Source: Fimbriiglobus ruber
GTDB taxonomy: Bacteria > Planctomycetota > Planctomycetia > Gemmatales > Gemmataceae
NCBI RefSeq assembly: GCF_002197845.1
Contig: NZ_NIDE01000002.1
Span: 62,001-126,000 of the forward strand
DNA length: 64,000 bases
Reading direction: 5' to 3'
In this document: in pieces, positions 7,977 through 27,145 of the stretch
How the letters are laid out: every line of letters starts with the position of its first letter
How positions within the stretch are numbered: the stretch's first letter is position 1
The notes under the pieces: generated by a model
Databases searched by the model: none
Told to the model about the DNA's origin: nothing
What the model saw: only the letters and a program-made list of their open reading frames with translations
Translations under genes and position numbers: made by a program

Positions 7977-9517
7977 TTATTTGGTCATGAGAAGTGCGGC
8001 CGCGAGCCCGGCGATCGCCAGCAGGGCGATCAAGAGGGCGACGATCAAGGCGTACGTGAGCCACGGGCGCTGGTCATGGATCGCGACGCGGGAAGTGCGG
8101 CCGTCCGCGTATTCGAGCGTGGCCCGGATGTCGACCTCGCTGTCGCGGACGCCCCCGCCACTGTAATAGGCCCCGCCCCCGGGCGCCGCGGGGGTGAGCG
8201 ATACGTCGCTCCGCGGCGGGGACATGGGACTGGTCTCGGCCCCGGTCCGGGTCGGCACCTGGGCCTGGGTGCCGTCGGTCGAACTGCCGAGGACCGACCC
8301 GCTCCCCGGGCCGGTCTGGAGGACGTACGACGCCGAACTCCCGGACGAGCCGCCGTACCCCCCCCGGCTGCTGTTCACGGACAGGCGGGAGGCGCCCTTG
8401 GCCCGGTCGGCCGCGTGCCCGGTGAGGGCCAGCACGGCCGGGCAGAGGTCCGGCATTTCGTGGACCGGCGGCGGGATCGGCGCGTCGTCCACCCAGGGGG
8501 CCAGGGCGTCGAAAAGCTCGGACGGCGTCTGGAACCGCTCGTCCGGGTTCTTCCGCATCATCTTGTGCAGGACCGCGAGCAACTCGGGGGGACGTCCTTG
8601 CGGAACTCGGCGACCAGGCGGGGCTCCTGGCTCTGGTGCGCGAGTAGCTTGTGCGCGATCGTCCCGTCCGGGAACGGGGACTGCCCGGTGAGCAGGAAGT
8701 ACATGCTGCCGCCGAGGGCGTAAATGTCCGCCCGGATGTCGACGACGTTGCTCATCGCCTGTTCGGGGGCGAGGTAGTCGGCCGTCCCGAGGACGCAGTT
8801 GTTGTCGAACTTCTCGGTGACGTTATCCTTGGTCGGGTTGGCCTGGTCGAAGATGCGGGCCAGGCCCATGTCCAGGATCTTGACGACCCCGGTCCGCTCC
8901 AGCAGCAGGTTCCCGGGCTTGATGTCCCGGTGGACCATGGCGAGTTCGTTCGCGTGGTGCAGCCCGTGGGCGGCCTGGGCCACGTAGTTGGCGGCCCGGA
9001 TCGGGGAGAGCGGGCCGTGCCGGGCGACGATCTCCTGGAGACTCGTCCCGTCCACGTACTCCATGACCAGGAAGTGCATCGTCTCGAACTTGTCGATGTC
9101 GAACGCGCGGACGATGTTCGGGTGGTCGAGGGAGGCCACCATCCGGGCTTCCCGGTGGAACCGGAGGAGGGCGGACGGGTCCTGGAGCTTTTCGTTCGGG
9201 AGTACCTTGATCGCCATCAGGCGCTTCATGACGACATGTTCGCACAAATACACGGCGCCCATCCCGCCGACGCCGAGGAGTTCGAGCAGCCGGTATTTCC
9301 CGGCGATCTCGAACCGCTTGTACCGCCCGAGCTTGAGCTGTTTGGTCTGGAACCGGGTCAGGAGCCCGTTACGGACCATCGCCTGCGCAAATTGGTCGAC
9401 GGTCGCCGACGGGGCGGGGCCGAACCGCGTCAGTTGGGCGTCGAATTGATCGTCCGGCACGAGGCCGCTTTTCCGGACGACGTCGATGAATTCCGCCACG
9501 GTCGCGGGCGCGGGCAT
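7977..9517 (-). pseudogene. Hanks-type Ser/Thr kinase gene interrupted by a 1-nt frameshift
   Basis: Two overlapping minus-strand frames together make one kinase. The first (9517 to 8558) encodes an N-terminal helical module, the kinase core (GVGGMGAVY, Lys104 in AIK, HRDIKPGN, DMGLA, LAPEQ) up to FRKDVPP, then runs into a nonsense tail. The second frame resumes exactly where expected (LLAVLHKMMRKNPDERFQ, the end of the kinase fold). It continues with a Gly/Ser-rich linker and a C-terminal membrane helix (LTYALIVALLIALLAIAGL). The switch lies at a run of six G at 8586-8591; seven would restore one frame of about 510 codons. It could be a real inactivating mutation or a homopolymer error. Catalytic motifs precede the break. 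Confidence 0.75.
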
Positions 9518-18849: not shown

Positions 18850-19323
18850 ATGCACAAAACCACCTCTCCCCGCGGTCTCCGGTTGGCCGTTGTTTTGGGG
18901 GTCTCGGCCCTCATGCTGCCGACCGGGATCGCGCTTTCACTCCGGGCCGACGACAAACCGGCTGCGGGAGCGAAGGCGCCGCCGGACCTCGCCAAGAACT
19001 TGATCGGCACATGGGTGCTGGTCGGCACGCCGGACAAGGTCGGCGAAGTGCCGAAAGCCGGCGGCCGCCTCAAGTTCTTCACCGGGAAACACTGGATCAT
19101 CACCCAGGCCGCCCCGGACACCGGCAAGGTTATCTTCCACCACGGAGGTACGTACACGCTCGACGGCGACATCTATGCGGGGACCATCGAGTACGCCAAC
19201 GAAAGCACGGCCGAACTCATCAAGAAAACGCACAAATTCAAGATTAAAGTGGAAGGCGACACGTACACGCAGATCGCCGTCGACGGCAACCCGTTTTCGG
19301 AGGTCTGGAAGCGGGTGAAGTGA
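18850..19323 (+). CDS. Secreted lipocalin-like hypothetical protein
   Basis: About 157 residues. A twin-basic then hydrophobic signal region (RGLRLAVVLGVSALMLPTG) ends near ALSLRADD. The mature part starts LIGTWVLVGTPD, a lipocalin-like 'GTW' opening, and alternates short beta strands (GRLKFFTGKHWIITQ, GGTYTLDGDIYAGT, FKIKVEGDTYTQ). Family assignment is by eye. ATG at 18850 is better spaced from AGGA than the ATG at 18841. Confidence 0.75.
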   Translation: MHKTTSPRGLRLAVVLGVSALMLPTGIALSLRADDKPAAGAKAPPDLAKNLIGTWVLVGTPDKVGEVPKAGGRLKFFTGKHWIITQAAPDTGKVIFHHGGTYTLDGDIYAGTIEYANESTAELIKKTHKFKIKVEGDTYTQIAVDGNPFSEVWKRVK

Positions 19324-19714
19324 CGCGGGCCGCAGCGCGATTTCCACCCGATCTTTCGCGGTCGGGCACACGGTTTTTGCAAAACGAAGCCAATTTGCAG
19401 CGACATGGACCGGCTTGTGGCCGTTGCCGGGAAGTCGCGGGCCCGTGTGCTCACCTGGCCGTTCTCCAGAAGTATCGAGATCACACGAACAGAATAACCG
19501 TGCCAGTTTGGCACCGAGAACAGCAAGAGTGGTCTGGTGTAGGGCTCGCTGCTGTGCGTCCTTGCCGGGGGCGGAACTGCGGCTCGGGATTAACGTGTTC
19601 AGGAGACAGCTCGACCCTCATGGTGTAGGGTAATTGAGGCGGTAATGACCGCGTCGCAGAGCCGTGCGGGCCACGGATGTTGAAAGCTTGTTCACCGGCT
19701 CCTCAAGGATTCTT
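19324..19714. other. Intergenic region, nothing recognised
   Basis: About 390 bp between plus-strand genes. There is no clear promoter, hairpin or coding frame. An AAGGA Shine-Dalgarno for the next gene is at its end. Confidence 0.4.
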
Positions 19715-20278
19715 ATGGCTTCCGATTCCGATGCCACGAACCCGATCTCGGTGAGCTTAACCCCGACATTCCCGGAATACCTACGAATTAATTGGTGGGT
19801 CACCTGGCGGCGGTTCCGGTTGCTCGTACCGTTCGCGGTATTGATGTTGATCGGGTTCGCGTTCATCCCAATGTTAGTTGGCGGACCCGAGACGCCGGCG
19901 GACCAATACGTCCGTCTTGCCCCGGCACTGATTCTGCCGGCGATCGTTTTCCTGTTGTTACCAATCACCATCTACCTGAGCGTTAGGAGGCGCTGGAAGA
20001 CGGCACCGGAACTTCGGGAACCAAGAACGTACACCATCAACAACGACGGGCTTCGGGTGGTCGGGGTATCGTTTGAGGGTTTCACAGCGTGGTCAAACAT
20101 CGTCAGCGCCGAGCGGGTAGGCAGCCAGATCTTGTTGGGTAACAGACAACAGCAATTTTTCTTGATACCCGACAGAGCAATGGAATCCGACGAACTTTGG
20201 CTTCGGTTCTGCCAGTTGGTTTCGACAAAGGTGAGTGGGAGTCGACTAAAAGCCGGGCGCCGAAGTCGTCACCGATGA
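19715..20278 (+). CDS. YcxB-like membrane protein
   Basis: A 187-residue protein. The N-terminal part is soluble, then two membrane helices (about residues 38-60, LLVPFAVLMLIGFAFIPMLV, and about 72-92, LILPAIVFLLLPITIYL). The C-terminal YcxB-type domain contains YTINNDGLRVVG, FTAWSNIVSAE and FFLIPDRAM. The start at 19715 has AAGGA upstream. YcxB-like proteins have no established role. Codon use is less GC-biased than that of the core genes around it, as in the next several genes. Confidence 0.75.
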   Translation: MASDSDATNPISVSLTPTFPEYLRINWWVTWRRFRLLVPFAVLMLIGFAFIPMLVGGPETPADQYVRLAPALILPAIVFLLLPITIYLSVRRRWKTAPELREPRTYTINNDGLRVVGVSFEGFTAWSNIVSAERVGSQILLGNRQQQFFLIPDRAMESDELWLRFCQLVSTKVSGSRLKAGRRSRHR

Positions 20279-20345
20279 CATCATCTCCAGCAGCAGTGGG
20301 CTGAGTTCTTGATGTCTGTGAATCGTGCAGACGAAGGAGGGCCGC

Positions 20346-21119
20346 GTGCGAAAACCTTCTCATTCCCTGCCGAAGTGGCTCCGGTGGCCGGTCCGCCGGT
20401 CCAATCAGGTTCTCTTCGCGGAAGCCCTGAGCCAGCTGTTGTCGGCCGGGGTGGAGCTGACGCGAGCCTTGCAAGCGGCCGGGGAAGCGAACCCGAGTTC
20501 CCGGTTCCGGGCCGCCCTGCTACGAATGAATTACCTCTGCCAGACGGGGAAAAGCCTGGCGGATAGCCTGTCCCAGACCAACGTCCGCGTGGCGGGCGGG
20601 CTGCTGACAGCCCTGGAAGTCGGAGAAGAGCGGGGATGTCTGGCCGAGCAGTTGGCCGCGTTCGCCCGCTGGCACGACCCGCAGGCCGGTGCGCGGCTGG
20701 CCGCGGAGGTTGGTCGATCGCCCGGGGCAGCGCGGTTCGCGGCGGCGCTGGCCACCTTGCTGTCGGACCGTCGGTTGACGGTATCCCTGGTGGAAGACGC
20801 CGGCCGTCTGGCGGGCGGTGGCAATCGATTCAATCAGACGATCGGGCGGCTCGCCACGTCCGTGCGAAACGGCGTCACGTTCACGGACGCCCTGGCGAGG
20901 GAAAAGGCCACGTTCGACCCGCTGTTCTGCCTCATGGTGAAGACTCCGGAGCACAGGAGCGAACTGCGCGCTGTCCTCGCGCGGCTGGGCGAAGACGTCC
21001 CGCTCCCGGCCCCAAGGTGGGTGCGCAAGGCGGTGCTTCTGTTCCTCTGGGTGTATGTCGTGTGCATCATAACCCTACTGATTTACGGCTGTCTGAAAGA
21101 ACTCGAATGGGTCGATTGA
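20346..21119 (+). CDS. Lone GspF-like (type II secretion/pilus platform) protein
   Basis: About 257 residues. It resembles one GspF/PilC cytoplasmic repeat: FAEALSQLLSAGVELTRALQ, LCQTGKSLADSL and GLLTALEVGEERGCLAEQLAAFA. A weaker second repeat (NGVTFTDALAREKATFDP) follows, then one C-terminal membrane helix (AVLLFLWVYVVCIITLLIYG). Full-length GspF is about 400 residues with three helices, so this is a shortened or diverged form, and no other secretion genes are adjacent. GTG at 20346 is preferred (AAGGAGG upstream). Confidence 0.65.
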   Translation: MRKPSHSLPKWLRWPVRRSNQVLFAEALSQLLSAGVELTRALQAAGEANPSSRFRAALLRMNYLCQTGKSLADSLSQTNVRVAGGLLTALEVGEERGCLAEQLAAFARWHDPQAGARLAAEVGRSPGAARFAAALATLLSDRRLTVSLVEDAGRLAGGGNRFNQTIGRLATSVRNGVTFTDALAREKATFDPLFCLMVKTPEHRSELRAVLARLGEDVPLPAPRWVRKAVLLFLWVYVVCIITLLIYGCLKELEWVD

Positions 21120-21151
21120 GTCGTAAGCAATGCCGGGAAGTGTGACATTTT

Positions 21152-21337
21152 ATGCGATTCTTCACGAAGGCATGGCTTACTAAAGAACTCACCGACGCGG
21201 CTTTTGAAGCGGCGCCGGGCGAATACCGCCTCCATCTCGCGTCGTTGCGGCTTCCGTCGGACGTACTCGTCCTTTCCGAGGTGAACATGCTGGGCGTCCT
21301 GACGGGACTCATCGCCCCCGGGATCTGCAGCAGGTAA
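21152..21337 (+). pseudogene. Truncated DUF4085-like gene
   Basis: A 61-codon ORF. Its first about 45 residues (MRFFTKAWLTKELTD...YRLHLASLRLPSDVLVLSEVN) look like the N-terminus of DUF4085-type proteins, which are usually several times longer. The sequence then becomes unrelated and stops. I read it as a decayed 5' end. The assignment is by eye and uncertain. Confidence 0.4.
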
Positions 21338-21445
21338 CCTACCTGCAAAGCAGCAGACACAAGGGCTGATTTTGCCGTAGCCGGGCGGAAGCAGCGAGCG
21401 TTAACGTACTAATGAGCGCCGAGTACCCCGCGGAAGGTCGCCCCA

Positions 21446-22000
21446 ATGCCGACCAGTGAAGAGTACGAAGCGAAGATTCAACCCCTCGGTTGGCCCGAGC
21501 TTCGGCTGTTGTGGAATCAGATCAAGGACCGGGACACTCCTGGTTGGGACGCGGGAAAGGCGTTCGAGTACCTCGTACTGCGCGCTTTCCAAATCGATGG
21601 TGCCGTGGTTCGATGGCCATACGGAGTGTCCCTGTACGGAATGGCTGAGGTCGTAGAGGAGATTGACGGCTCGGTGCGAGTGGGTGGGTTGTACAGCCTC
21701 GTCGAGAGCAAGGACGAAGACGGTAACATCGCCATCGCGCCGATCGCAAAATTGCGGAACCAACTGTTGCGTCGGCCCGCCGGGACATTCGGGATGGTTT
21801 TCAGTTCGCGTGGGTTTACCGAGCCGGCGATCCAACTCGCCCACTTTGCGTTACCTCAATCCATCCTGCTTTGGACCGGAACGCAGGTAGAGTACGCCTT
21901 GGACAACCGCAACATCTGCACGCTCTGCGAGCAAAAATACCGCATGTGTGTGGACTACGGCTTGCTCGATTTCGATGTCACGACGGGGGCGATCGCGTGA
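21446..22000 (+). CDS. PD-(D/E)XK nuclease-like protein, partner of a TOPRIM protein
   Basis: A 184-residue soluble protein. The arrangement GKAFEYLVLRAFQ (Glu41), an Asp around residue 74, ESK at 87-89 in YSLVESKDEDG, and a following helix KLRNQLLRR matches a restriction-endonuclease-like (PD-(D/E)XK/Mrr type) core. A strand FGMVFSSRGFTEPA follows, as in Mrr-like domains that read 'ITT-G'. The C-terminus has a cluster of Cys (ICTLCEQKYRMC). Its stop overlaps the next start (GTGA), so the two products are made together. Function as a defence or DNA-processing nuclease is inference. Confidence 0.65.
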   Translation: MPTSEEYEAKIQPLGWPELRLLWNQIKDRDTPGWDAGKAFEYLVLRAFQIDGAVVRWPYGVSLYGMAEVVEEIDGSVRVGGLYSLVESKDEDGNIAIAPIAKLRNQLLRRPAGTFGMVFSSRGFTEPAIQLAHFALPQSILLWTGTQVEYALDNRNICTLCEQKYRMCVDYGLLDFDVTTGAIA

Positions 22001-22554
22001 AAACTTATCTTCTGGTGGAAGGGCAAGCGGATCTGGAGATCTTGCGGCGGCTACTCCCGTCCGACATTGAGCAGCAGACCACCATCGCCGCTGCGGGCGG
22101 GCGGAGCAATATCACGTCGATGGCCCGCTCGCTCCTGGTGACGAAGCGAAAACCGCTGGCCCTGGTCATGGACGCGGATGCCGTGGAAGACGGTGCCGTG
22201 CGGCAGCAACGCCAGATCTCCGAAGAACTACTCCGGTCCGTATCCGCGGGGGTTCCCTTCAAGGTCATTCTGATGGTGCCGGAGATCGAGGCGTGGTTCT
22301 TCTTGGTCCCCGATGCTCTTGAACGACTTAGCGGAGAGAACCTCACTACTGACCTGAAGGCGTTAGCCGTGTCGCGGCCGAAGGAAGTTCTGGCACAACT
22401 TTTCAAGAGTCGTGGAGGCTCGCCGATCACTTTGCTTGCGAACGGCATGACTGAGGACGAAATTCAGTCACTCCGAGAAACGCCGCCGGGCAAAGAACTT
22501 CTCGCGTTTTTGAGTGATCCAGTCGCGAACAAAATCCAACCGCTGCTAGTGTGA
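21997..22554 (+). CDS. TOPRIM-domain protein coupled to the nuclease-like gene
   Basis: A 185-residue protein starting at GTG 21997, overlapping the upstream stop by 4 bp. It has the TOPRIM hallmarks: Glu8 in LLVEGQAD, and the D-x-D pair in LVMDADAVED (59-61). EIEAWFF (about 96-102) follows, as in OLD-like and DUF4276-like TOPRIM nucleases. These acidic residues bind Mg2+ for phosphoryl transfer. No ATPase domain is present, unlike OLD proteins. With the upstream nuclease-like gene it forms a compact two-gene cassette. Confidence 0.72.
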   Translation: MKTYLLVEGQADLEILRRLLPSDIEQQTTIAAAGGRSNITSMARSLLVTKRKPLALVMDADAVEDGAVRQQRQISEELLRSVSAGVPFKVILMVPEIEAWFFLVPDALERLSGENLTTDLKALAVSRPKEVLAQLFKSRGGSPITLLANGMTEDEIQSLRETPPGKELLAFLSDPVANKIQPLLV

Positions 22555-22608
22555 TGGACAGCTACGTCCTGTCGCGTTGACCCGACCCGAAAACAGGAAT
22601 CTCGATCT

Positions 22609-22839
22609 ATGGCGTCGCTCATGCAGGAACTCGGGGTCGACCGACTCAGTCGCGAGCAACGCATCACGCTCGTCCAGGAAATTTGGGATACTATCGCGGC
22701 CGAGTCGACCCAACCCTTACTGACCGAGGCACAGCGCCGCGAACTGAAACGCCGGGTCGCGGACGACGACGCCAACCCAGGCGACGGCGTTCCCTGGGAA
22801 CAGGTCAAAGCACAGACGCTGGCTCGGCTGAAACCGTGA
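22609..22839 (+). CDS. Addiction-module antitoxin (PF09720-type)
   Basis: A 76-residue protein with the family pattern: LSREQRITLVQEIWDTIA, then LTEAQRRELKRRVADDDANPGDG and VPWEQVKAQTLARL. Such proteins neutralise ParE/RelE toxins encoded immediately downstream with a 1-4 bp overlap. Here the GTGA overlap and the first residues of a ParE-type toxin are present but the toxin is broken, so this is an orphan antitoxin. Confidence 0.85.
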   Translation: MASLMQELGVDRLSREQRITLVQEIWDTIAAESTQPLLTEAQRRELKRRVADDDANPGDGVPWEQVKAQTLARLKP

Positions 22840-22955
22840 GCCTACCTCTCATCTTCCGTCCCGCAGCAATTCGTTTCCCGGCACGCGCGGCCGGCCGTTG
22901 CTCACAAACCGCGCATTACTCTTGCCTTCCGCGAACGCATAAGCCACAATCCTAA
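22836..22955 (+). pseudogene. ParE-type toxin stump
   Basis: GTG at 22836 overlaps the antitoxin stop (GTGA). The first residues V-SLPLIFRPAAIRF match the usual start of ParE toxins (LPL.FRPAA..EF), then the sequence turns into unrelated text and stops after 39 codons; ParE is normally about 95-100 residues. The toxin appears to have been truncated by deletion. Confidence 0.6.
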
Positions 22956-23035
22956 TTACCTGCCAGAACCCCGGCCCCGCGGCCGTAGTGTCGGATCCTG
23001 CCCGAACGCGCTTCGCCTCTTCGAGGATGCCTCCC

Positions 23036-25576
23036 ATGCCGACCCTTCGCACGGCCGCCGCGGCCACCGTCCTCGCATCACTCGTCGTCTTCTCCGCACA
23101 ACTCGCTCGCGCCGCCGAAGCAGTCGTTCCCGTGGCCGACGTGCCGCCGCCGTCGCCAGGCGAAGTGACCGCGCTGGCCGTGTACCCGGCCAAGGTCGCG
23201 CTGCGGAGCGGGGACGAGTCGGCGCAACTCGTCGTCACCGCCACGCTTGCCGATGGCCGGCTCCGCGATCTGACGCACGACGTCAAGTACGCGGTCGGGG
23301 ACGGCAAGACGGTGTCGGTGTCCAGCACCGGCCGCGTCCTGCCACTGGCGAACGGCACGACCGAGATCGTCGCGACCTACGGCGGCAAGTCGGTGAAGCT
23401 GCCCGCGTCGGCCGAACACTTCGGCGAAGACCTGCCGATCAACTTCCCGAACCAGGTCGTGCCCGTGTTCACCAAGCTCGGCTGTAACAGCGGCGGGTGC
23501 CACGGGAAGGCGTCCGGGCAGAACGGGTTCAAACTGTCGCTACTCGGGTTCGAGCCGGACTTCGACTATGTCACGCTCGTGAAGGAAGCCCGCGGCCGCC
23601 GGCTCTTCCCGGCCGCCCCGGACCAGTCGCTCTTCTTGATGAAGGCGACCGGCGTGACCCCGCACGGCGGCGGCAAGAAGATGGAGCCGGGCAGCGAGGA
23701 ATACAAGATCGTCCGCCGGTGGATCGGGGCCGGCACCCCGTTCGGCAAGGAGACCGACCCGGTCGTCACCAACATCAGCGTGTTCCCCGAACACCGGATC
23801 ATGGCCCGGCACACCAAACAGCAGTTCGCCGCTTACGCCCACTACTCGGACGGCACGGTCGAAGACATCACCCGCCGCGCCCAGTACGAGAGCAACGAAG
23901 GCGAGATCGCGGGCGTGGACGGCAACGGGCTGGTGCAGACGCACGGGATGAGCGGCGAGGCGGCCATCATGGCCCGCTTCCAGGGCCGCGTGGCCGTGTT
24001 CCGGGCGACCGTCCCGCTCGGCACGAAGACGCCCGCGTGGCAGTTCGCCGAGAAGGGCGTGGTCGACAAGCTCGTCGCCAAGAAGTGGCGGGAGCTGAAC
24101 CTCGTCCCGTCCGAAATCTGCTCGGACGCCCAGTTCGCCCGCCGCGCCTACCTCGACGTGACCGGCACCCTGCCGACCCCGCAACAACTGCGAGCGTTCG
24201 AGGCCGATACGAGCGCGGACAAGCGGGACAAGCTGGTCGACGCCCTGCTCGAAACGCCCGAATACACCTACTTCTTCGCGAACAAGTGGGCGGACATCCT
24301 CCGTGTGAAACGGCGGGGCGAGGCGCAGCGGGCGGCCGGGACGTTCGCGTTCCACTCGTGGATCAAGGAAGCGGTCGCGACCGACATGCCGTACAGCGAT
24401 TTCGTCCGCGGCATCCTCGGGGCGACCGGCGACGAGACCAAGAACCCGCCGACCGTCTGGTACAAGGAACTGGAGAAGCCCGAGCAGTTCGTGGACGACA
24501 CGGCCCAGGTGTTTCTCGGCCAGCGGCTCGCCTGTGCGAACTGCCACCACCACCCGTACGAGAAGTGGAGCCAGGACGATTACTGGGGTCTGGCCGCGTT
24601 CTTCGGCCGGCTCGGGCGGAAGCAGGTCCAGCAGCCCGGCTTCGACGCGCAGCGGGGCCAGGGGCTCACCGTCCAGGTGGTATACACCACGGCGACCGGG
24701 ACCGTGACCAACAAGCGGACGAACAAGAAGGCTCTCGTCAAGCCGCTCGACGGCGAGCCGATGGACATCGCCGTCGAGGACGACCCGCGGCAAAAACTCG
24801 TCGACTGGATGGTCGAGCCGAAGAACCCGTTCTTCGCGAAGGCGGTGGCCAACCGGTACTGGGCGCACTTCTTCGGCCGCGGCATCGTCGACCCGCTCGA
24901 CGACATGCGGGTGACGAATCCGCCGAGCAACCCGGAACTGCTGGACGTCCTGGCACAAACCCTGGTCGACAACAAGTACAGTCTGAAGTCGCTGATCAAG
25001 GTGATCTGCAAGAGCCGGGCGTACCAGCTGTCGGCCGTCCCGAACGAGTTCAACAAGCACGACAAGCAGACTTATGCCCGGTACTACCCGCGGCGGCTGA
25101 GCGCGGAAGTGTTGCTCGACGCGGTGAACCAGGTGGCCCACAGCCCGCAAGCGTTCAACGGCTTACCGAAAGACAAGAACGCGCCGGCCCGAGCGATCCA
25201 GCTGCCGGACGAGTCGTTCAGTTCGTACTTCCTGGAAGTGTACGGCCGGCCGCAGCGGATCAGTGCCTGTGAGTGCGAGCGGGTGAGCGAGGCGAACCTG
25301 GCCCAGGCGCTGCACATGCTGAACAGCGACGATGTTCAGGGCAAGATCACCCGCTCCGGCGGCCGAGCCGACCTGCTGGCCCGGGCGGACGACAAGCGGC
25401 CGGACGCCGAGAAGGTCGAGGACTTGTTCCTGTGGGCGTTCGGCCGCAAGCCGAGCCCGGACGACCTGAAGGCGGCCCTCGACCACGTCCACAAGAACGA
25501 GAAGACCAAGAAGGTGGCGTTCGAGAACATCCTGTGGGCGTTGCTGAACACGAAGGAGTTCGTGTTCAACCAGTGA
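23036..25576 (+). CDS. DUF1549/DUF1553 protein with Big2-like domain and heme-like CxxCH motifs
   Basis: An 846-residue exported protein. A signal peptide ends near ARA. A Big2-like domain (about 33-125) is followed by a c-type-like segment LGCNSGGCHGK, a second Big2-like region (about 235-330), DUF1549 (about 350-560, with ACANCHHHPYEKW) and DUF1553 (about 600-840, RLSAEVLLDAVNQV, LNSDDVQGKI, FVFNQ at the end). These proteins are abundant in planctomycetes and extracytoplasmic; biochemical role unproven. ATG at 23036 is preferred because GAGG is well spaced (an earlier in-frame ATG is at 23027). The last 173 bp recur exactly at 26973-27145. Confidence 0.92.
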   Translation: MPTLRTAAAATVLASLVVFSAQLARAAEAVVPVADVPPPSPGEVTALAVYPAKVALRSGDESAQLVVTATLADGRLRDLTHDVKYAVGDGKTVSVSSTGRVLPLANGTTEIVATYGGKSVKLPASAEHFGEDLPINFPNQVVPVFTKLGCNSGGCHGKASGQNGFKLSLLGFEPDFDYVTLVKEARGRRLFPAAPDQSLFLMKATGVTPHGGGKKMEPGSEEYKIVRRWIGAGTPFGKETDPVVTNISVFPEHRIMARHTKQQFAAYAHYSDGTVEDITRRAQYESNEGEIAGVDGNGLVQTHGMSGEAAIMARFQGRVAVFRATVPLGTKTPAWQFAEKGVVDKLVAKKWRELNLVPSEICSDAQFARRAYLDVTGTLPTPQQLRAFEADTSADKRDKLVDALLETPEYTYFFANKWADILRVKRRGEAQRAAGTFAFHSWIKEAVATDMPYSDFVRGILGATGDETKNPPTVWYKELEKPEQFVDDTAQVFLGQRLACANCHHHPYEKWSQDDYWGLAAFFGRLGRKQVQQPGFDAQRGQGLTVQVVYTTATGTVTNKRTNKKALVKPLDGEPMDIAVEDDPRQKLVDWMVEPKNPFFAKAVANRYWAHFFGRGIVDPLDDMRVTNPPSNPELLDVLAQTLVDNKYSLKSLIKVICKSRAYQLSAVPNEFNKHDKQTYARYYPRRLSAEVLLDAVNQVAHSPQAFNGLPKDKNAPARAIQLPDESFSSYFLEVYGRPQRISACECERVSEANLAQALHMLNSDDVQGKITRSGGRADLLARADDKRPDAEKVEDLFLWAFGRKPSPDDLKAALDHVHKNEKTKKVAFENILWALLNTKEFVFNQ

Positions 25577-25577
25577 G
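25405..25577 (+). repeat. 173-bp direct repeat, copy 1 (3' end of the DUF1549/1553 gene)
   Basis: Covers the last 57 codons, the stop and one further base of the DUF1549/1553 gene. By base-by-base reading it is identical to 26973-27145 (offset 1568); the bases on either side differ (A/C before, T/C after). The two copies flank the GTPase cassette. Confidence 0.95.
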
Positions 25578-25717: not shown

Positions 25718-26566
25718 ATGGCAGATGAAGAACCAACGAACTTGGAGGAGCCTACCCGAAGTATCATTCGCGGCGTTCTCAAAGGCTTTTGGGATTGGTG
25801 GACCAGCGACCGGCGCACCTCCGAAAATCATCTTGAGCCGACCCGCGGAGTACTGATCCTCGGCCCCGGGGGAACCGGGAAGACGACCTTCGCACGTCTC
25901 ATGTCCGGTAAGATTGACTGGCTCGACGAGTTCTCGGGCAGGTATACTGAGAGTGTTGAACTTGAACAGTTTACACTTTTGGACGATCCGGATGTTGAAG
26001 TCGTTGTTGCTCCGGGCCAGCAGTATCGTAGGGCTTCGACATGGCCTGAACTGTTGAGGCAGGTGGCCGCCGGCGACTACCGGGGACTCGTACTGGTGAA
26101 CGCTTACGGTTACCATACTTTCAGTACACCGAGCTACAAATATCACCGGCTTTTCACGGGCTCAAAGCCGGACTTTTTGAAGGCGTATTTTGACGACCGG
26201 AGGACCGATGAGCTTCGAGTTTTGCGGGAAGTTGTTCCCCACCTCTCAATTTGTCCCAAGAAAATTTGGGTTCTTTCCGTCGTTACCAAACAAGACCTCT
26301 GGGCCAGCCAGCAGCAAGCGGTCGAGACCCATTACCAGATCGGGGAATACGCGGCAGAAATCCAGACCGTAGCCGCAGCTTTGGGAGCGCAGCGATTCCG
26401 TCATGAGATCGTGTTCCTGTCGCTCGTGTTGCGAAACTTGGAAACATTGGCGAACGAGCCGCTTCAATCGACCGAAGCTGGGTACGACATGCGACGATTG
26501 ACAAACTCGATCCAGAACATGAGTCAAATTGTCGAAGGATTGAAGAGTTGGGAGGAGAAGCAGTGA
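25718..26566 (+). CDS. P-loop GTPase-like protein of a two-gene inserted cassette
   Basis: A 282-residue soluble protein. Walker A is GPGGTGKT (49-56). VVVAPGQQYR (95-104) stands at the DxxG/switch II position, with the Asp replaced by Ala (A-P-G-Q). The guanine-specificity motif appears as TKQD at 190-193 after three hydrophobic residues. The core resembles small TRAFAC GTPases (Gtr1/SRPRB-like 'PGQ' types). The N-terminus carries an aromatic helix (GVLKGFWDWWTSD) that could touch membrane or partner. AAAGGAAAT precedes the start. The stop overlaps the next start (GTGA). Base composition is less GC-rich than the flanks. Function unknown; a signalling or conflict role is inference. Confidence 0.75.
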   Translation: MADEEPTNLEEPTRSIIRGVLKGFWDWWTSDRRTSENHLEPTRGVLILGPGGTGKTTFARLMSGKIDWLDEFSGRYTESVELEQFTLLDDPDVEVVVAPGQQYRRASTWPELLRQVAAGDYRGLVLVNAYGYHTFSTPSYKYHRLFTGSKPDFLKAYFDDRRTDELRVLREVVPHLSICPKKIWVLSVVTKQDLWASQQQAVETHYQIGEYAAEIQTVAAALGAQRFRHEIVFLSLVLRNLETLANEPLQSTEAGYDMRRLTNSIQNMSQIVEGLKSWEEKQ

Positions 26567-26934
26567 CTGTATCTACCGAACTTGATAGCCCGGGCATGTT
26601 TATTGAGCGGGCAGTGCCATTACTCAAAGAGTATCTAAATAAGGTCACTGGCGTTCAAAAACAAATCCGCGATCTTCGCAACGAATACGAACAATCGAAT
26701 GGCGTTTACGGTGCCGATACGAATGCAATATATAAAGCCGAATTCGATTCTTTGCAGCAATACTTTAATCGACTCAATCCGGCCTTGGATTTTTTTTCCC
26801 AACAAGTGTCGGGTATGATTGAACAGGGACAAGTAGACCCGCTTACGAGAGTCGAGCTGCAAATGCGTCTGGCAGAATTGGAGTCAGCCCTGCTTCAAAT
26901 TCCCTATCTACTCCAAGCGTATCGTATTCGGTAA
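26563..26934 (+). CDS. Small helical partner protein of the inserted GTPase
   Basis: A 123-residue, all-helical protein from GTG 26563, translated through a GTGA overlap with the GTPase. Charged/hydrophobic heptads (LLKEYLNKVTGVQKQIRDLR, then LQMRLAELESALLQIPYLL) suggest a coiled coil. No catalytic motif, signal or membrane segment. GC is visibly lower than anywhere else in coding sequence nearby (many ATT, AAA, AAT codons), a sign of foreign origin. The tight coupling suggests a stoichiometric complex with the GTPase, perhaps as effector or regulator. I do not recognise the family. Confidence 0.7.
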   Translation: MTVSTELDSPGMFIERAVPLLKEYLNKVTGVQKQIRDLRNEYEQSNGVYGADTNAIYKAEFDSLQQYFNRLNPALDFFSQQVSGMIEQGQVDPLTRVELQMRLAELESALLQIPYLLQAYRIR

Positions 26935-26972: not shown

Positions 26973-27145
26973 CGCCGAGAAGGTCGAGGACTTGTTCCTG
27001 TGGGCGTTCGGCCGCAAGCCGAGCCCGGACGACCTGAAGGCGGCCCTCGACCACGTCCACAAGAACGAGAAGACCAAGAAGGTGGCGTTCGAGAACATCC
27101 TGTGGGCGTTGCTGAACACGAAGGAGTTCGTGTTCAACCAGTGAG
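26973..27145 (+). repeat. 173-bp direct repeat, copy 2 (duplicated 3' end of the DUF1549/1553 gene)
   Basis: Identical to 25405-25577, including the TGA stop. It has no start of its own and is not a gene. It is preceded by cassette sequence and followed by a large hairpin terminator. It marks the distal boundary of the inserted segment. Confidence 0.95.

What the first reader, a model, noticed from the sequence alone, without database searches (positions are those of the whole stretch)
21446..22554. Coupled PD-(D/E)XK-like + TOPRIM gene pair
Two small proteins, one with a restriction-endonuclease-like core (E41, ESK 87-89) and one with TOPRIM acid residues (E8, DAD 59-61), share a GTGA overlap. 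They sit in an accessory stretch with a decayed gene upstream and a broken toxin-antitoxin locus downstream. OLD-type defence systems combine TOPRIM with an ATPase; this pair has no ATPase, so it would be a different architecture.
Basis: partly seen in the sequence, partly recalled or inferred. Interest (0 to 1): 0.72.

Follow-up and report, generated by a model that had tools for sequence, protein, structure and literature searches.

The report
Paired restriction-type nuclease and TOPRIM gene
Two tightly linked small bacterial genes, a DNA-cutting-enzyme relative and a partner with the TOPRIM fold, recur together in scattered bacteria and plasmids; the pair looks like an unnamed, probably defensive nuclease module, but its function is untested.

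Summary
The pair is real. ORF A (21446-22000) is an Mrr-type PD-(D/E)XK protein; ORF B (21997-22554) has the TOPRIM fold of OLD/Gabija/PARIS proteins; they share a 4-nt GTGA overlap. I found 21 loci (window included) in Planctomycetota, one cyanobacterial strain's plasmids and a Rhizobium plasmid. All 20 compact A genes found by A searches have B directly downstream; 10 A-like domains inside larger proteins have none in the DNA held. No OLD-type ATPase was found in the DNA held.

One point changes the picture. A's catalytic residues are kept in 17 of 17 unbroken A genes, but B keeps an acid at all three TOPRIM positions in only 12 of 21 loci. So A is the likely effector, and B more likely gates, guides or inhibits it than serves as an obligatory second nuclease. 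A is broken in 4 of 21 loci; B is open in all.

A defence role is inferred from patchy spread, plasmid carriage and defence genes near three pairs. Planctomycete neighbourhoods look mostly ordinary and my defence-neighbour control was uninformative. New variant of a known kind.

The parts
21446..22000 (+). ORF A, 184 aa: Mrr-type PD-(D/E)XK nuclease domain protein. Catalytic codons E41 21566-21568, D74 21665-21667, E87 21704-21706, K89 21710-21712
   Evidence: Pfam Mrr_cat 21.2 bits, cut-off 21; 6 of 7 scanned members match Mrr_cat at E up to 1, best 7.1e-9; E41/D74/[EQ]87/K89 in 17 of 17 unbroken paired A
21997..22554 (+). ORF B, 185 aa, GTG start: TOPRIM-fold protein of OLD/DUF4276/DUF3226 type. 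Acid codons E8 22018-22020, D59 22171-22173, D61 22177-22179
   Evidence: AlphaFold2 pLDDT 87; VIA-align Z up to 12.1 to OLD and 11.2 to Gabija GajA, 9.2 to a chain of the PARIS complex; HEC-01B 5.4e-7
21997..22000 (+). GTGA: start of B overlaps stop of A (translational coupling inferred)
   Evidence: sequence; a start codon at the same 4-nt overlap is available in 13 of 21 loci

Best explanation
A and B form one co-translated, two-subunit nuclease module. Shown: the two domains, strict linkage, purifying selection, conserved catalytic residues in A, no linked OLD-type ATPase in the DNA held. Inferred: A is the effector and cuts DNA by the metal-dependent PD-(D/E)XK chemistry of Mrr enzymes. 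B, derived from an OLD-type TOPRIM nuclease, binds A and/or DNA and gates or guides it; in some members B may still nick nucleic acid, but its own chemistry is dispensable. The module probably acts against foreign DNA (phage or plasmid) and is carried as an accessory, mobile two-gene unit.
For: 20 of 20 compact A genes found by A searches have B directly downstream, and one more locus found by B has a remnant of A upstream; 0 of 10 A-like domains in larger open frames (309-525 codons) have B in the DNA held. Paired A fall on one side of a branch from five fused A (support 93/91, not starred; long branches warned of). A and B distance matrices correlate (r 0.88; 30 of 5040 permutations as high; 7 pairs). 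A's catalytic residues kept in 17 of 17 unbroken A, B's three acids in 12 of 21 loci and in 8 of those 17; the label needs 5 changes on the A tree, 3 forced by starred branches. B fold: TOPRIM of OLD type. No match to the ATPase of L025 in 21 loci. Mobility: two Leptolyngbya plasmids and one Rhizobium plasmid; several copies in one genome (G000 2, G498 3, G474 2). Defence neighbours, from 10 proteins that I picked at 4 loci: SIR2 and short Argonaute near one Leptolyngbya pair (3.1e-107, 1.2e-228), PDC-S02 near another, an hsdR fragment near L009, a QueC-model match near the Rhizobium pair.
Against: Planctomycete copies sit mostly among ordinary-looking genes. PADLOC scans of 91 neighbour and 91 control ORFs were uninformative. 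No A or B in phage records; no A in viral contigs (B was not scanned there). A is broken in 4 of 21 loci while B stays open, which also fits a toxin-inhibitor pair. No assay and no complex prediction; A's AlphaFold model is poor. B in L041, L049 and L051 is matched weakly and in part. Outside the window's phylum only plasmid records were sampled.
Confidence: 0.5

Rival explanations
1. Toxin-inhibitor pair: A is a DNase toxin and B binds and restrains it; loss of A is tolerated, loss of B is not.
For: A is disrupted in 4 of 21 loci (stop in L009, frameshift in L011, short insertion with frame change in L012, C-terminal remnant in G136/L024), B in 0 of 21 across its matched part. B acids often lost.
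Against: 4 of 21 against 0 of 21 is a small difference. A TOPRIM-fold antitoxin is not known to me (recalled). 12 of 21 B keep all three acids, unexpected for a pure inhibitor.
Confidence: 0.22
2. Two-nuclease defence complex: both A and B cut (DNA and DNA, or DNA and RNA as AriB of PARIS cuts tRNA), both needed.
For: Window B keeps E8, D59, D61; 12 of 21 B keep an acid at all three positions. AriB is an active TOPRIM nuclease (PMC12409363, passages).
Against: 9 of 21 B lack at least one acid, including the second copy in the same genome (R8, N61), with A unbroken in all nine.
Confidence: 0.18
3. A DNA repair or recombination accessory pair, not defence.
For: TOPRIM also occurs in RecR and primases (PMC10568477, passages); one pair lies by a gene annotated recombinase D and a putative SNF2 helicase.
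Against: Rare and patchy: pairs in 10 of 397 genomes of the class; several copies per genome and plasmid-borne.
Confidence: 0.08

Closest known systems
OLD nucleases, classes 1-3, and Gabija GajA
   Same: B has the TOPRIM fold of their C-terminal region over nearly its full length (Z 8.3 to 12.1)
   Different: they carry an ABC ATPase in the same protein (PMC10568477, passages); none was found here, and the partner is an Mrr-type nuclease
PARIS (AriA ATPase + AriB TOPRIM)
   Same: TOPRIM encoded as a separate small gene in a two-gene unit; B aligns to a chain of the PARIS complex at Z 9.2
   Different: partner is a PD-(D/E)XK protein, not an ATPase; B acids often lost
HEC-01 (PADLOC candidate; HEC-01B) and MADS protein MAD4
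   Same: window B resembles HEC-01B weakly (5.4e-7) and MAD4 (0.0017); best MAD4 match among 10 B is 3.5e-7
   Different: 0 of 7 A proteins match any PADLOC model at 0.01; the NCBIfam MAD4 model scores 18.7 bits against a cut-off of 160
Mrr type IV restriction enzymes
   Same: Mrr_cat nuclease domain with E, D and [EQ]xK residues
   Different: no second Pfam domain in A; strict linkage to B
HEPN/Toprim-NTD1 proteins (PMC3710099, passages)
   Same: a family of N-terminal domains found fused either to TOPRIM or to an Mrr-like REase
   Different: there TOPRIM and Mrr are alternatives on one N-terminal domain; here they occur together as separate genes

Membership tests
OLD family nuclease | TOPRIM fold | tested here: met
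   Z 12.1, 168 residues aligned, rmsd 3.8
OLD family nuclease | ABC ATPase in cis or in the adjacent gene | tested here: not met
   window neighbours; no tblastn match of the ATPase of L025 in 21 loci; Walker A motifs in ORFs of 150 codons or more within 4 kb in 5 of 21 loci, in different proteins (several loci are short contigs)
OLD family nuclease | intact TOPRIM acid residues | tested here: inconclusive
   present in the window; all three in 12 of 21 loci
PARIS | AriA ATPase next to the TOPRIM gene | tested here: not met
   adjacent genes in the window are A and an antitoxin
HEC-01 | HEC-01A partner next to HEC-01B | tested here: not met
   adjacent genes are A, with no PADLOC match, and an antitoxin
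Mrr_cat / PD-(D/E)XK nuclease | profile match and E-D-[EQ]xK residues | tested here: met
   (0.2 bits over cut-off)
Mrr_cat / PD-(D/E)XK nuclease | restriction-endonuclease-like fold by structure prediction | tested here: inconclusive
   pLDDT 55 from 3 sequences; the 11 best Foldseek rows are chains of two enzymes, MspJI and Nt.BspD6I, all with E above 0.1
Toxin-antitoxin | one gene toxic alone and neutralised by the other | not testable with these tools
   needs expression
Anti-phage defence system | protection against phage or plasmid | not testable with these tools
   needs infection or transformation assay
Anti-phage defence system | enrichment near known defence genes | tested here: inconclusive
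   positive at picked loci; planctomycete neighbours versus controls uninformative

The most novel reading that the evidence does not exclude
An OLD-type TOPRIM nuclease has been captured, without its ATPase, as a fixed partner of an Mrr-type restriction nuclease and is turning repeatedly into a non-catalytic regulator: an ATPase-free defence module in which a TOPRIM pseudoenzyme controls a restriction enzyme.
Probability: 0.35. Interest if true: 0.68.

Novelty: new variant of a known kind. Interest (0 to 1): 0.5.

Why it matters
In the known OLD, Gabija and PARIS systems a TOPRIM nuclease works with an ATPase. A conserved pair without that ATPase, coupled to a restriction-type nuclease, would show that the TOPRIM part can work under another partner. 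Because natural members differ in which TOPRIM acids they keep, the question whether TOPRIM acts as enzyme or as scaffold is directly testable within one family.

Tried and rejected
Rejected: (1) Chance ORFs: conserved pairs and purifying selection. (2) Membership in OLD, PARIS or HEC-01: no ATPase or HEC-01A partner found. (3) 'Decayed gene upstream' for the 61-aa ORF: no relative. (4) Phage or viral home: no A or B in phage records, no A in viral contigs.

Led nowhere: profile search of solved structures (0 matches for A; 3 matches for B, E 0.73 to 0.97, of unrelated names); AlphaFold of A and its fold search; empty-site comparison, since the upstream neighbour was found only in the own genome of 31 searched and the downstream search failed on my wrong frame; defence-neighbour control; repeats within 21100-22700, where two weak repeat pairs looked like chance; alignment of the DNA upstream of A; Rfam over 19000-25000 (none). 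The genome-contig scan used two narrow patterns, and the genome surveys could be centred only on genomes of the window's phylum, so other phyla are sampled only through plasmid records. In some searches at most 8 candidates per genome were scored, so counts of genomes are lower bounds.

Literature: no paper that I saw describes this pair; searches. Of the papers listed I looked at passages of five and only the listing of the rest. The library held no paper with DUF3226, or with DUF4276 plus TOPRIM or defense, so this absence is weak.

Full report
Observation. The window comes from a 12.36-Mb genome (contig C2), by its relatives a planctomycete (the three loci bear planctomycete names).

Domains. 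A reaches the Pfam Mrr_cat cut-off by 0.2 bits (21.2 against 21, residues 37-148); 6 of 7 members scanned match that family at E up to 1, best 7.1e-9. B matches DUF4276 (1.3e-4) and DUF3226 (6.3e-4), both below cut-off, and HEC-01B of PADLOC at 5.4e-7. Across 10 B members, at E up to 1, DUF3226 is matched by 5 (best 7.7e-7) and OLD-like_TOPRIM by 4 (best 4.1e-5). AlphaFold2 gives B a confident model (pLDDT 87, four sequences), with E8 at the end of strand 1 and D59/D61 at and just after the end of strand 3, as in TOPRIM domains (recalled). VIA-align ranks OLD and Gabija GajA chains first (Z 12.1 to 10.1), then a hypothetical Pyrococcus protein (10.0), more Gabija rows and a chain of the PARIS complex (9.2); unrelated folds begin at 8.0. 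Foldseek's only hit below 0.001 is an OLD protein (5.1e-5). A's model is poor in the core (pLDDT 55, three sequences). Its 11 best Foldseek rows are chains of two enzymes, MspJI and Nt.BspD6I, all with E above 0.1. A's fold therefore rests on profiles and residues.

Survey. Single-protein searches of 59 related genomes: A in 3, B in 2. Profile of A: 17 of 397 genomes of the class, at 22 places; 7 of 95 of the family; 4 of 392 in a phylum-wide draw with an earlier five-row profile. A B profile in the same phylum draw: 4 of 392. It brought in one locus with a remnant of A just upstream of B (G136) and one that is a DUF4276 gene beside an AAA_21 ATPase, a different arrangement (L025). Of the 22 class places, 14, in 10 genomes, are pairs and 8 are A-like domains alone. 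Plasmid records add three pairs on two plasmids of Leptolyngbya sp. NIES-3755 and one in Rhizobium beringeri, and one A-like domain without B in R. leguminosarum. The genome-contig scan adds L009; L008 and L010 of that scan are the same loci as G550 and G013. G307 comes from the phylum draw. In all there are 21 distinct loci.

Linkage. I scanned these loci in six frames with A and B profiles. All 20 compact A genes found by A searches have B directly 3' on the same strand; the 21st locus (G136) was found by B and has only a remnant of A. In 13 of 21 a start codon is available at the same 4-nt overlap as in the window; elsewhere the genes are a few bases apart or overlap more. Ten further A-like domains (L006, L016, L017, L032, L042, L043, L045, L046, L047, L050) lie in open frames of 309-525 codons and have no B in the DNA held, which for L043 reaches only 0.3 kb downstream. 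Unbroken paired A lie in frames of 177-259 codons, except L038, whose 628-codon frame extends over apparently non-coding upstream sequence; L048 begins at the edge of its contig. In a tree of 22 A rows (17 unbroken paired, 5 of the fused ones) the paired rows fall on one side of a branch (93/91, not starred; the program warns of long branches). B in L041, L049 and L051 is weakly matched (1.6e-11, 4.6e-5, 1.5e-4) and only in part.

Active sites. In the 17 unbroken A genes E41, D74, E or Q87 and K89 are all kept, Q once. In B an acid at all three positions (8, 59, 61) is kept in 12 of 21 loci. It is lost in nine: L018, L035, L036, L037, L039, L041, L048, L049, L051; position 8 could not be aligned in L041 and L049, and the alignment there is uncertain. 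All nine have an unbroken A. The second copy in the window's own genome (contig C4) has R8 and N61. On the A tree the intact/lost label needs at least 5 changes, of which starred branches force 3; 32 of 500 shuffles do as well. So the loss seems to have happened more than once. B evolves faster than A: against L008 dN is 0.385 for B and 0.122 for A (dS is high, 1.0 and 2.2). This is why I take A for the effector and B for a partner whose chemistry is dispensable.

Broken copies. A is interrupted in 4 of 21 loci: a stop codon at the place of the catalytic lysine (L009), a one-base frameshift (L011), a short insertion with frame change (L012), and a C-terminal remnant (G136). B is open across its matched part in all 21. 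An unbroken copy of A exists on the same Leptolyngbya plasmid as L012 (L019). The asymmetry is small but is what a toxin-inhibitor pair would show, so I keep that rival at 0.22.

Context. The ATPase of L025 has no tblastn match (1e-3) in any of 21 loci. Walker A motifs in ORFs of 150 codons or more within 4 kb occur in 5 of 21 loci, in different proteins; several loci are short contigs, so flanks are incomplete. Ten neighbour proteins that I picked at four loci were scanned against PADLOC: a SIR2 protein and a short Argonaute near one pair on Leptolyngbya plasmid 1 (3.1e-107, 1.2e-228), a PDC-S02 candidate on plasmid 3, an hsdR fragment beside L009, a QueC-model match near the Rhizobium pair; the other five had no match. 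In planctomycete genomes the neighbours look mostly ordinary by eye. For a control I scanned 91 neighbour ORFs from 10 loci (of 112 called there; the 20 A and B and one ORF overlapping B left out) and 91 of 92 ORFs from other stretches of the same seven genomes. Neighbours matched 15 PADLOC models (among them mad3, PDC-S03, PDC-S04, SoFic, Cas3, capH), at most two proteins per model. Controls matched 39 models (25 listed), nearly all of those listed PD-T4-6 kinases, two proteins each. The test does not discriminate, and the ORF calls are crude.

Literature. The OLD review (PMC10568477, passages) describes OLD proteins of classes 1-3 as ABC ATPase plus Toprim, and PARIS, a proposed class 4, with the two on separate genes; it also notes JetD of Wadjet. 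PMC12409363 (passages) shows AriB cutting tRNA. PMC12839542 (passages) reports OLD ATPases paired with other nucleases, including PD-(D/E)XK, that is, the ATPase kept and the TOPRIM replaced. The present pair is the converse: TOPRIM and PD-(D/E)XK together, ATPase absent. PMC3710099 (passages) has an N-terminal domain fused to TOPRIM or to an Mrr-like REase in different proteins. The passages of PMC10853773 had nothing on this pair. I found no description of the pair in the searches listed under Tried and rejected.

Verdict. A true, conserved and apparently unnamed two-gene module: new variant of a known kind. Anatomy and linkage are well supported within what was sampled; the defence role and the regulator role of B are inferences.

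Noticed in passing
window 25405-25577 and 26973-27145: A perfect 173-nt direct repeat (end of the large gene 22988-25576) flanks a P-loop gene (25718-26566) and a small ORF (26548-26934); possible insertion, duplication or assembly effect. The P-loop gene has no second copy in the genome.
   Followed up: partly
window 22609-22839: Orphan TIGR02574/Unstab_antitox gene with no clear toxin ORF before the next gene.
   Followed up: partly
window 20325-21119: Short protein with T2SSF matches, found only in the own genome among 31 genomes searched at E 1e-20.
   Followed up: no
L012 about 8285-8308 and the A gene of L019: Short insertions in two paralogous Leptolyngbya A genes at different sites share, by eye, a 10-nt word in opposite orientation, like a small dispersed repeat; in one the frame is lost, in the other it is kept.
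   Followed up: no
L016 931-1935, L017 988-1962: Planctomycete proteins with the A-like Mrr domain at the C-terminus and a shared N-terminal region that resembles an effector-associated domain (name recalled, not tested).
   Followed up: partly
L012 4095-6955: SIR2 plus short Argonaute genes about 1 kb from a pair on Leptolyngbya plasmid 1.
   Followed up: partly
L025 1414-3191: DUF4276 gene beside an AAA_21 ATPase in another genome of the phylum, an arrangement with the ATPase, useful as a contrast.
   Followed up: partly
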